From positions 1 to 37,305 of the forward strand of contig CAMZKE010000090.1 of assembly GCA_947311115.1 (NCBI GenBank): DNA of 37,305 nucleotides. Direction: 5' to 3'. A program made the translations under genes and the position numbers. Below, piece after piece: positions 7,652 to 11,350 of the stretch (positions are counted from its first letter, which is position 1; every line of letters begins with the position of its first letter). This DNA is from an uncultured Bacteroidales bacterium. Lineage in GTDB: Bacteria > Bacteroidota > Bacteroidia > Bacteroidales > JAFGXI01. The notes beneath the pieces were generated by a model that saw only the letters and a list, made by a program, of their open reading frames with translations, was not told the origin of the DNA and did no database searches.

Positions 7652-10600
7652 TTACTCTTCATTTTCTGCCAGCCATTGTTTAATTTTCTCAAGCTGAATA
7701 TTTTTATTAACTTCTCTCATTTTTTGTGCTGTTTTGGTGTAATACTGATGTGTTTCTAAGAATTTAACCTGAAGTTTATTCCAATCTTTAGTTCCTTTAA
7801 TTTGCTTAAATTTAAATAGCTCTTCATATAATTTAATTGAGACAGGTAAAAAATCCGGTCTACCTAAATAATCTAAATCTGCATCGCAAATAATTTCTTC
7901 TAATATATTTTCTGGTTTTGGTGGGAATTTTGTTGCGTAAATAAGTTCAGTTATCGTTTTTATTTGGCTTTCTGTATAACCGTATTTAGGTAATAACTCT
8001 TTAGCTAATTTAACACCGGATTCTTCATGGTCATTATACCCTAAAACAAATCCTAAATCATGCAACAAAGCTGCTGTTTTCAGTACAATCATTTCTTCAG
8101 GTGATATTTGTTCGCCTACTCCAATTATTTCAACCTGATTAACTACATCAACAGTATGTTTTAAATCATGATATTTTATATCTTCATTAAGGGCATTTTC
8201 AAGTTTGTAATATACAACATCTTCAAGTTCTCTAAACCTAATTTGTTGATATCTAAGCATAAACTTTTTGTTTGGGACTTTGCCTTCGCCATTAACCGAA
8301 AATTCTTTTTTAATACCATTAACAAAATACATGTCAATTTCGCCTTTATATTTTACGGGTAATTTACCTCTATGCTCACATTCGAAAAACTCTGATATTG
8401 AACTATATGTAGCTTCTGAAATATTTATTTCGCCGGGAATACCTGATGATTCCATTCTACTTGCAATATTTACTGTATCTCCCCAAATGTCGTATGATAA
8501 TTTTTTATTTCCTATAACTCCTGCAATTACAGGTCCTGTATGAATGCCAATTCGAACCGCCCAGTCATTAAGGGCTTCTTTTTTTAAATCATTCATAAAT
8601 TCTCGCATTTTAATAGCAACCATTACTACATCAATGGCATTTGTTAGATTTTTTCTTGGTATTCCTCCTGCGCACATATACGCATCGCCTATAGTTTTTA
8701 TTTTCTCTACCCTTTGAGTATCAACAAGCTCATCAAACTTTAAAAACAAACGGTCTAATTCTTCCAATAATGTTTCTGATTGCATATGTTCAGCAATTTT
8801 TGTAAACCCTTGTATATCAGAAAATAGAACAGTAACCATTTCGTATTTTTTTCGTTTAGCTCTTCCTGCACTTTGAATTTCCTTAGCTGTATCTTCGGGT
8901 AATAATTTTCTTATTAGCATTTCTGCTTTTTCCTTTTGCCTAACAACCTCCTCTGTTTTTTCAGCTATTTCATGTTCTAACAACTGTTTTTCTTTTTCGT
9001 ATAAATATGAACGATACCTAATTATCATTATAATAAACGATGCAAGGAGTATCAGGTATAATAAATAAGCGTACCAAGTTCTGTAAACAGGAGGTTTTAT
9101 TTTGAATTTATATACTAAGGGTTCGGAAATATTATCTAATATACCTTTAGAAATTATTTTAAAAGTGTAATTCCCCTCTGGTAGATTTGTGTATTCTTTG
9201 TAATTCTCGTTATCCCATTCAGACCAATGCTCATCATAACCTTCAAGTATATATTTATATTCTATTTCTTCATTACTTTTGTAATCAGGTGAAGTAAAAA
9301 CAAATTCTATTGTATTTTGCGAATATTTATATATTGGGAGTATTGTGTTATTATAATTTATTTGTTCAGAGTGAATAAAATTATATACTGTAGAATCGGC
9401 TACTTTAATATTTTTAAAGAAAACTCTTGGTAAATAGTTTTCTTTATTTAATAATTTCATATCAAACCTTATTAAATTATTATTTGTACCAAACCAAACA
9501 ATGGAATCTTTATCTGTAAATATTGACTCAATTGTTATATCTGAAATAATATTAAATGGAGAGCTAATAATATTATAATTATTTTCATTGCTTTTATACA
9601 AAGCTACTCCGGTACTTTTTTTAAAAACTTTATGTTTCCCGGAGCTAAACCATAGATTTCCCATTTTATCCTCTTTTATAGGAAAAACCCATGCATTTGT
9701 ATTTAAACTATCAAAAGCAATTAGTGTATCTTTATAAAATTTATTAAAATTTTTATCAAATCTATAAACTCCTTTAAATGTAGAGTATAACACTCCATTT
9801 CGTGAGTTGTAAACGTCTATCCATTTAAAATCATCAGGAAATCCAAGCCCTTTCGTTATTGATGTTATTTGTGCATACACAGAAATACTATCTTTAAAAA
9901 ATATTCTAAACAAACCATCGTTATCGCTTCCTGCCCAAACTATACCGTCTTTATCTTCTGCTAATGTTCTTATTTTGCTTGAAAAACCTTTAATATAATT
10001 ACCTTTTATTATTGTATTGTTTTTCCATTTTGTTAGAAAAACACCTTTAACGCTACTAATTAAAATTGTATTAGTATCAGAGTTTAGTGTTATTATTTTC
10101 TCAAATTCGCCATCAAATAATTTGTTAGTTGTATTATCTGGTTTTATTTCGAATAAACCTTCTTTTGTAGTTACATATAAATGATTATTTATATTGTATA
10201 AATTGTATGCGTTAACGCTTAAATTTTGAATTAACTCAAATCTAATGTTTGAATAACATTTTTTATTTATATTGAATATTTTCTTATTTAACATTTTAAA
10301 TACACCTTGACTTGTAGAGACATATATAGAGTTGTTAAATCTAATTACACCTCTTATACTGCCTCCTAACCCTGATGATTTCCCGAAAAATGTAAATGCG
10401 TTTGGTATGTCAACTCTACTTATACCATTTTCTGTTGCAAGCCAAACGTGTTTGTTTCTTTTATCAACAAAAATGTTATTTATATTATCATCGAGCAGTC
10501 CTGATTCTTTTTTAATATTGCAGATTAATTTACCTTGTTTGTTTAATATTACAACACCGCATCTTTCGGTTCCGTATATGAAATCATTATTTGTTAATTT

Positions 10601-11350
10601 GCTTGATGTATATATATTAGTATTGGAAAAGAAATAATCTGCATCTGTTTTAAATGGCGAAATATTACCATTGCTAAGTATAAAAAAGCTTTTATTTTTT
10701 ATTTTAATAAGTAATTTATTTTTTGAAAATGGTAATATAGATTCAATTGTATTATTTTTAAATATAGGATTATTGTTAAAAACTTTAATTGAAGAATTGC
10801 TATACGTATATATTCCTGAACCTATTTTGTCAATAAATAAAGTAGTGTCTATTTTAAACAAGTTATATCCTGATTTGTTGTAATCAACTAAAAACAAATC
10901 TTTTCGCCATAAATACAATGTTTTTTTTGTTTGAATAATAATATCTTCGCCAAAAGCTTTTATATTTATAATGTGTTTGATGTTATTAAACTTATCGGGG
11001 AAATCGTCTGATATTGAATGAAAATATATATCGTTATTTTTGTCTTTTTTAATTACTCCAAAATTATTATAAGATGCTGCATAAATATCGCCCGAAGCTG
11101 TTTTTGCTAACGAAGGACCTCCTTGCATATCTATTAAAGTCCAATCGGTACCATCAAAAATTAATATACCGTTTAAGTTACCAAAATACATAAAACCATT
11201 ATCATCAGTCTCTATAGAATAGTTTTGACTCTCGTAGCCATAAATTTTTGGTGGATAATTTGTTATTTTAGGAATACCTATTTCTAATTGTTGTGCAAAA
11301 ACAAACAGGCTACTTAATAATATGTATATTATGCTAATAAAAAACCTCAT
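7652..11350 (-). CDS. Periplasmic-sensor adenylate cyclase fused to an HD phosphohydrolase domain
   Basis: This is a 1232-aa multidomain signalling protein. In order it has: a signal peptide (1-19); a two-propeller sensor with Reg_prop-like repeats (about 40-630, for example VWLATENGISRVD and VWAGSDNDGLFRI); a Y_Y_Y domain (about 685-752); one membrane segment (about 759-779); a coiled coil (783-815); a class III nucleotidyl cyclase (about 835-1013); and an HD domain (about 1055-1180). The cyclase keeps both metal aspartates (D845, D889), the adenine-selecting pair K885 and D954, and N961/R965, so adenylate cyclase activity is predicted. The HD domain keeps H1061, H1065, H1097-D1098, H1108 and D1156/D1158. 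The HD part may hydrolyse a cyclic nucleotide, but its substrate is unknown. No cAMP-binding regulator is visible nearby. Confidence 0.88.
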   Translation of the reverse strand: MRFFISIIYILLSSLFVFAQQLEIGIPKITNYPPKIYGYESQNYSIETDDNGFMYFGNLNGILIFDGTDWTLIDMQGGPSLAKTASGDIYAASYNNFGVIKKDKNNDIYFHSISDDFPDKFNNIKHIINIKAFGEDIIIQTKKTLYLWRKDLFLVDYNKSGYNLFKIDTTLFIDKIGSGIYTYSNSSIKVFNNNPIFKNNTIESILPFSKNKLLIKIKNKSFFILSNGNISPFKTDADYFFSNTNIYTSSKLTNNDFIYGTERCGVVILNKQGKLICNIKKESGLLDDNINNIFVDKRNKHVWLATENGISRVDIPNAFTFFGKSSGLGGSIRGVIRFNNSIYVSTSQGVFKMLNKKIFNINKKCYSNIRFELIQNLSVNAYNLYNINNHLYVTTKEGLFEIKPDNTTNKLFDGEFEKIITLNSDTNTILISSVKGVFLTKWKNNTIIKGNYIKGFSSKIRTLAEDKDGIVWAGSDNDGLFRIFFKDSISVYAQITSITKGLGFPDDFKWIDVYNSRNGVLYSTFKGVYRFDKNFNKFYKDTLIAFDSLNTNAWVFPIKEDKMGNLWFSSGKHKVFKKSTGVALYKSNENNYNIISSPFNIISDITIESIFTDKDSIVWFGTNNNLIRFDMKLLNKENYLPRVFFKNIKVADSTVYNFIHSEQINYNNTILPIYKYSQNTIEFVFTSPDYKSNEEIEYKYILEGYDEHWSEWDNENYKEYTNLPEGNYTFKIISKGILDNISEPLVYKFKIKPPVYRTWYAYLLYLILLASFIIMIIRYRSYLYEKEKQLLEHEIAEKTEEVVRQKEKAEMLIRKLLPEDTAKEIQSAGRAKRKKYEMVTVLFSDIQGFTKIAEHMQSETLLEELDRLFLKFDELVDTQRVEKIKTIGDAYMCAGGIPRKNLTNAIDVVMVAIKMREFMNDLKKEALNDWAVRIGIHTGPVIAGVIGNKKLSYDIWGDTVNIASRMESSGIPGEINISEATYSSISEFFECEHRGKLPVKYKGEIDMYFVNGIKKEFSVNGEGKVPNKKFMLRYQQIRFRELEDVVYYKLENALNEDIKYHDLKHTVDVVNQVEIIGVGEQISPEEMIVLKTAALLHDLGFVLGYNDHEESGVKLAKELLPKYGYTESQIKTITELIYATKFPPKPENILEEIICDADLDYLGRPDFLPVSIKLYEELFKFKQIKGTKDWNKLQVKFLETHQYYTKTAQKMREVNKNIQLEKIKQWLAENEE

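What the first reader, a model, noticed from the sequence alone, without database searches (positions are those of the whole stretch)
7652..11350. One chain with periplasmic sensor, adenylate cyclase and HD phosphohydrolase
A Reg_prop/Y_Y_Y sensor normally feeds a histidine kinase or DNA-binding output. Here it is joined across one membrane helix to a class III cyclase with every catalytic and adenine-selecting residue (D845, K885, D889, D954, N961, R965) and then to an HD domain with a full metal-binding set. If the HD domain hydrolyses cAMP, the protein would set both synthesis and removal in response to a periplasmic ligand, probably a glycan or peptide by analogy with hybrid two-component sensors. 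Cyclic-nucleotide signalling is little explored in Bacteroidota.
Basis: partly seen in the sequence, partly recalled or inferred. Interest (0 to 1): 0.75.

Follow-up and report, generated by a model that had tools for sequence, protein, structure and literature searches.

The report
Receptor fused to cyclase and hydrolase
A Bacteroidales bacterium carries one membrane receptor whose inner end has both a cyclic-AMP-making domain and an HD hydrolase resembling the enzymes that destroy cyclic AMP; the pairing is conserved in many relatives, so it is probably a real on/off signalling device, although no activity has been measured.

Summary
It encodes a signal peptide, a Reg_prop/Y_Y_Y sensor, one membrane helix, a class III cyclase with all six key residues, and an intact HD domain. 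This is a conserved family, not a one-off: the HD domain occurs in 143 of 247 genomes of the order, and 138 of those also carry a class III cyclase. Three further lines tie HD to cyclic-mononucleotide turnover. (1) Stand-alone HD genes lie directly downstream of a class III cyclase gene in 18 of 35 loci. (2) A soluble sister clade, including a second copy in this genome, keeps HD intact while often losing cyclase residues; a membrane lineage at the porZ locus keeps the cyclase and loses HD; one receptor (L065) lost the cyclase but kept HD. (3) Distant HD relatives are fused to the Pycsar effector domain PycTM. The predicted HD fold matches eukaryotic cyclic-nucleotide phosphodiesterases and small bacterial HD hydrolases equally well, so it does not settle the substrate. 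Best reading: a periplasmic signal sets the balance of cAMP synthesis and hydrolysis in one chain, with plant CAPE as nearest precedent. Ligand, substrate and receptor remain unproven.

The parts
7652..11350 (-). Receptor-cyclase-HD gene, 1232 aa, ATG at 11350, stop at 7652
11294..11350 (-). Signal peptide, residues 1-19
   Evidence: hydropathy; sequence ends FVFA|Q
9287..11293 (-). Periplasmic beta-propeller (Reg_prop) sensor, residues 20-688
   Evidence: Pfam PF07494 E 6e-14; homologous to PDB 4a2l and 3v9f
9080..9286 (-). Y_Y_Y domain and juxtamembrane part, residues 689-757
   Evidence: Pfam PF07495 689-734
9017..9079 (-). Single membrane helix, residues about 758-778
   Evidence: hydropathy maximum 2.33 at 759-777
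8855..9016 (-). Helical signalling linker, residues 779-832
   Evidence: predicted long helix H2-27 and H30-38 of the model
8315..8854 (-). Class III nucleotidyl cyclase domain, residues 833-1012; metal D845, D889; adenine-type K885, D954; N961, R965
   Evidence: structural match to class III cyclases, Z up to 26
7655..8314 (-). HD phosphohydrolase domain with extension, residues 1013-1232; H1061, H1065, H1097, D1098, H1108, D1158
   Evidence: model pLDDT 89, pTM 0.87

Best explanation
It is a one-chain cyclic-AMP receptor-effector. The periplasmic propeller binds an unknown ligand; the signal passes through one helix and a helical linker to a homodimeric class III adenylate cyclase; the C-terminal HD domain hydrolyses the cyclase's own product (most likely 3',5'-cAMP to AMP). 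Ligand state would set the balance, as in SpoT-type or GGDEF-EAL enzymes. In this genome a soluble paralogue with a decayed cyclase and an intact HD (contig C21, L077:7476-8822) would act as the dedicated hydrolase or regulator. SHOWN: architecture, catalytic residues, conservation, domain swaps and losses, co-occurrence. INFERRED: ATP as substrate, cAMP hydrolysis by HD, reciprocal control. UNKNOWN: ligand and cAMP receptor.
For: Six of six cyclase residues, adenine type, conserved in 34 of 35 propeller relatives. HD motif YHN.KHT.DV / AALFHD.G / DHE / CDADLDYLGR conserved. Co-occurrence of this HD family with class III cyclases in the order: 138 both, 5 HD only, 10 cyclase only, 94 neither; among genomes with only stand-alone HD, 33 of 34 have a cyclase. 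Stand-alone HD directly downstream of a cyclase gene on the same strand in 18 of 35. Split version: L063 propeller-cyclase gene (1089 aa) followed by an HD gene (196 aa) about 12 bp later. Opposite losses: the soluble clade keeps HD in 84 of 84 but all six cyclase residues in only about half; the porZ-locus membrane lineage keeps the cyclase and loses HD; L065 keeps sensor and HD without cyclase. Distant HD fused to PycTM. HD model aligns to PDE10A with Z 15.1, rmsd 3.9, 197 residues; 12 of 24 members hit PDEase_I weakly; PDE9A E 0.002.
Against: No activity data. PDEase_I never exceeds its curated cut-off. Structural matches to YpgQ and 2pq7, small bacterial HD hydrolases, score the same (Z 15.2-15.6). 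The distant HD branch (mostly HD-PycTM length) occurs in 36 genomes without a detectable class III cyclase. No CRP-like protein here has the canonical cAMP motif. Co-occurrence counts are not corrected for phylogeny.
Confidence: 0.62

Rival explanations
1. Receptor-adenylate cyclase in which HD only binds cAMP (or another nucleotide) as an allosteric feedback domain and does not hydrolyse it.
For: HD sits on the chain like a regulatory domain; in one lineage it decays while the cyclase stays intact, so the cyclase does not need its chemistry.
Against: The metal-binding histidines and aspartates and the neighbouring YH are invariant in 44 aligned HD domains; stand-alone HD genes and a receptor with HD but no cyclase exist, so HD acts without a cyclase in cis.
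Confidence: 0.15
2. HD hydrolyses a different nucleotide (an NTP or dNTP, (p)ppGpp or a cyclic dinucleotide) and is only co-regulated with the cyclase.
For: The fold matches YpgQ (solved with ADP) as well as it matches PDEs; distant HD occurs without class III cyclases.
Against: Near-perfect co-occurrence of the close branch with class III cyclases (138 of 143 genomes in the order; 23 of 23 close matches in the phylum) and repeated fusion or adjacency to cyclases.
Confidence: 0.17
3. The cyclase makes a non-cAMP product (cGMP or a pyrimidine cNMP, Pycsar-like anti-phage signalling) and HD removes it.
For: PADLOC PycC models hit the cyclase (E 2e-17); distant HD is fused to PycTM.
Against: PycC hits probably reflect general class III homology; K885 and D954 are the adenine-selecting pair; this genome has no PycTM and the gene stands beside housekeeping genes.
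Confidence: 0.06

Closest known systems
CAPE (COMBINED AC with PDE) of Marchantia and other streptophytes (PMC5159850, PMC8115329)
   Same: One chain with a class III adenylyl cyclase and a cyclic-nucleotide-hydrolysing PDE domain; for CAPE both activities were measured.
   Different: Eukaryotic; PDE at the N-terminus and AC at the C-terminus; a true class I PDE by sequence. Here the order is reversed, there is a periplasmic propeller sensor, and HD is below the PDEase_I cut-off.
Hybrid two-component sensors (PDB 4a2l, 3v9f)
   Same: Reg_prop propellers + Y_Y_Y + one membrane helix; sequence homology E 1e-16.
   Different: Output is cyclase-HD, not histidine kinase plus DNA-binding domain.
RelA/SpoT and GGDEF-EAL enzymes (general knowledge)
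   Same: Synthesis and hydrolysis of one messenger in one chain; paralogues lose one or the other activity.
   Different: Different messengers and unrelated synthetase domains; a mechanistic analogy only.
Pycsar (PycC cyclase, PycTM effector)
   Same: Class III-type cyclase; distant members of the same HD family are fused to PycTM.
   Different: No PycTM in this genome; adenine-type residues; no defence context seen.

Membership tests
Class III nucleotidyl cyclase | Guanylate_cyc domain above cut-off | tested here: met
   198.9 bits against cut-off 21.9
Class III nucleotidyl cyclase | Two metal Asp, adenine Lys/Asp, transition-state Asn/Arg | tested here: met
   D845, D889, K885, D954, N961, R965
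Class III nucleotidyl cyclase | Forms the nucleotide cyclic monophosphate | not testable with these tools
   needs assay
HD superfamily phosphohydrolase | H...HD...D metal set and HD fold | tested here: met
   H1065, H1097, D1098, D1158; PF01966 29.5 against 22 bits; HD-fold matches Z 15
Class I cyclic-nucleotide phosphodiesterase (PF00233) | Match above Pfam's curated cut-off | tested here: not met
   12 of 24 members match weakly, best E 2e-4; no genome of 296 in the phylum sample over the cut-off
Class I cyclic-nucleotide phosphodiesterase (PF00233) | PDE catalytic fold | tested here: inconclusive
   PDE10A Z 15.1, tied with YpgQ and 2pq7
Hybrid two-component sensor | Reg_prop + Y_Y_Y periplasmic sensor | tested here: met
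Hybrid two-component sensor | Histidine kinase and response-regulator output | tested here: not met
   Pfam shows cyclase and HD only
Pycsar defence system | PycTM effector with the cyclase | tested here: not met
   No PF18967 match in the genome
CAPE | AC and PDE activity in one chain | not testable with these tools
   domains present, order reversed; activity needs assay

The most novel reading that the evidence does not exclude
A Bacteroidota-wide cAMP module not found described in the papers searched: a membrane receptor that both makes and destroys cAMP, a soluble pseudo-cyclase-HD phosphodiesterase, and a tandem universal stress protein that binds or buffers the nucleotide, with the locus often next to the type IX secretion gene porZ. 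Cyclase and hydrolase functions have been split between the two proteins in some lineages.
Probability: 0.3. Interest if true: 0.8.

Novelty: new variant of a known kind. Interest (0 to 1): 0.6.

Why it matters
If HD hydrolyses cAMP, this would be a bacterial receptor that sets both synthesis and removal of cAMP in one chain (known in plants as CAPE), and a PDE-like HD family tied to cAMP in Bacteroidota, where cAMP signalling and its receptors are little charted. Natural single-activity variants (dead HD, dead cyclase, split genes, HD-only receptor) give ready-made controls, so the question can be tested directly. The recurring Usp neighbour in relatives offers a concrete candidate for the missing nucleotide-binding partner.

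Tried and rejected
Paper searches for this architecture in Bacteroidota and for HD-type cAMP phosphodiesterases fused to cyclases found no description; only open-licence papers were searched. A search for PorZ with adenylate cyclase gave no relevant paper by title or abstract. CRP-like receptors: four, none with the canonical cAMP motif. Pycsar membership: rejected, no PycTM. Full-length cyclase-HD fold search: filled by cyclases, uninformative for HD, so HD was folded alone. A comparison with bacterial class I PDEs was planned but none exist over the cut-off in the phylum sample. Plasmid search: no record covers 80% of the protein in one place.

Full report
What is there. The gene runs on the minus strand from 11350 to 7652 and encodes 1232 residues. 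It has a signal peptide, Reg_prop repeats, a Y_Y_Y domain, one membrane helix at about 758-778, a helical linker, a class III cyclase (833-1012) and an HD domain (Pfam core 1064-1158). The sensor is homologous to the hybrid two-component sensors 4a2l and 3v9f. The gene stops 8 bp from the convergent rodA; upstream on its own strand lie two CoA-transferase subunit genes.

It is a conserved family. The host is a Bacteroidales-type genome of 3.53 Mb (99% complete; a same-family genome, G053, is held under the title Acetofilamentum sp.). The same-genus genome G161 has a colinear orthologue; the cyclase and HD parts evolve under equally strong constraint (dN/dS about 0.08 each) while the sensor drifts faster (0.18). 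The HD domain was found in 143 of 247 genomes of the order, in three forms: about 1200 aa with propeller and cyclase, about 470-640 aa with cyclase, and about 200 aa alone. Class III cyclases occur in 148 of the same genomes; 138 have both, 5 only HD, 10 only cyclase, 94 neither. These counts are not corrected for relatedness and the fusions make part of them trivial, but 33 of 34 genomes with only stand-alone HD also have a cyclase. In the phylum sample all 23 genomes with a close HD have a cyclase; the distant branch does not follow this rule (36 genomes without).

What HD does: context. Of 35 stand-alone HD genes with both neighbours visible, 18 lie directly downstream of a class III cyclase gene on the same strand, with several different cyclase architectures. 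In L063 the usual fusion is split into a 1089-aa propeller-cyclase gene and a 196-aa HD gene about 12 bp further on. In Flavobacteriia and others an HD about 30% identical is fused to PycTM, the Pycsar effector domain. All three link the HD family to cyclic mononucleotides.

What HD does: complementary decay. In a residue census of 153 distinct cyclase-HD proteins, the propeller class keeps all six cyclase residues in 34 of 35 and the HD core in 34 of 35. The soluble class keeps HD in 84 of 86; the two exceptions (L112, L114) group in the tree with the dead-HD membrane lineage, so the remaining soluble proteins are 84 of 84. Only 46 of 86 keep all six cyclase residues; metal Asp845 is replaced by Asn, Glu, Ser or Tyr in scattered positions of the tree, and Trp956 (YDIWG) is Lys in 72 of 86. 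Conversely a lineage of Y_Y_Y-cyclase proteins of about 600 aa keeps the cyclase and has lost the HD metal ligands, and L066 shows the same in a propeller protein. Most of these dead-HD proteins lie about 3 kb from a soluble HD-intact protein, with porZ and a Ham1-type gene in between. L065 is a propeller-Y_Y_Y-HD receptor without a cyclase. Each activity can therefore be kept without the other, and losses of one are often found where a paralogue keeps it. This is what one expects of two opposed enzymes acting on one messenger, though it is indirect evidence.

What HD does: fold. HD folded alone has pLDDT 89 and pTM 0.87. VIA-align gives the bacterial HD hydrolases 2pq7 (Z 15.6) and YpgQ (15.2), tied with human PDE10A (15.1, 197 residues, rmsd 3.9), PDE7A, PDE9A and the choanoflagellate RhoPDE. 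By sequence the HD profile hits 2pq7 (E 2e-6), PDE9A (0.002) and PDEB1 (0.007) over the H and HD motifs, and 12 of 24 members hit PDEase_I weakly. None passes the PDEase_I cut-off. So HD is PDE-like but is not a member of PF00233, and the fold alone does not fix the substrate.

This genome. There are three class III cyclases: this receptor; a receiver-cyclase (contig C123); and the soluble cyclase-HD of contig C21 (L077:7476-8822), whose cyclase has lost metal Asp845 (Glu), D954 (Thr) and N961 (Asp) but whose HD is intact. There are four CRP/FNR-like proteins, none with the canonical cAMP phosphate-binding motif, and no PycTM. The cAMP receptor is therefore unknown.

A candidate partner. A tandem universal stress protein flanks the propeller-cyclase-HD gene in 30 of 37 loci (a few are the same contig in two collections) and the stand-alone HD in 22 of 35. 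An orthologue 51% identical exists here on contig C126 but away from the receptor. [quoted passage not shown] other Usps bind ATP. So this is a lead, not a finding.

Judgement. The closest precedent is the plant protein CAPE, with both activities measured (PMC5159850). No paper found in the open library describes the bacterial arrangement; this does not prove that none exists. The domain architecture is probably visible in public domain databases (own knowledge), so the novelty lies in the system-level pattern rather than in the existence of the fusion.

Noticed in passing
L077:7476-8822 (contig C21 of the window's genome): Second cyclase-HD protein, soluble, with a decayed cyclase (VLIVEFFGF, YTLKG, N to D) and intact HD; probable pseudo-cyclase.
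   Followed up: yes
L107:5245-11694 and about 20 similar loci: Conserved order recO - soluble cyclase-HD - porZ - Ham1/rdgB - Y_Y_Y-cyclase with dead HD: a link between cyclic-nucleotide genes and the type IX secretion gene porZ.
   Followed up: partly
L040, L178-L211, L256:5309-6136: Tandem universal stress protein gene recurrently beside cyclase-HD genes or beside stand-alone HD genes.
   Followed up: partly
L218:1865-3043, L222:2986-4227, L224:1772-3076, L226:1802-3100: HD of the same family fused to PycTM, also in genomes without a detectable class III cyclase.
   Followed up: partly
L236:2989-5631, L237:1943-4522: HD at the C-terminus of TPR proteins whose N-terminus looks TIR-like; in L236 a class III cyclase gene lies next door.
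   Followed up: no
L065:4950-7955: Propeller-Y_Y_Y-membrane helix-HD receptor with no cyclase.
   Followed up: yes
G000 contig C123 (L002:1033-2052): Response-regulator receiver fused to an apparently intact class III cyclase.
   Followed up: no
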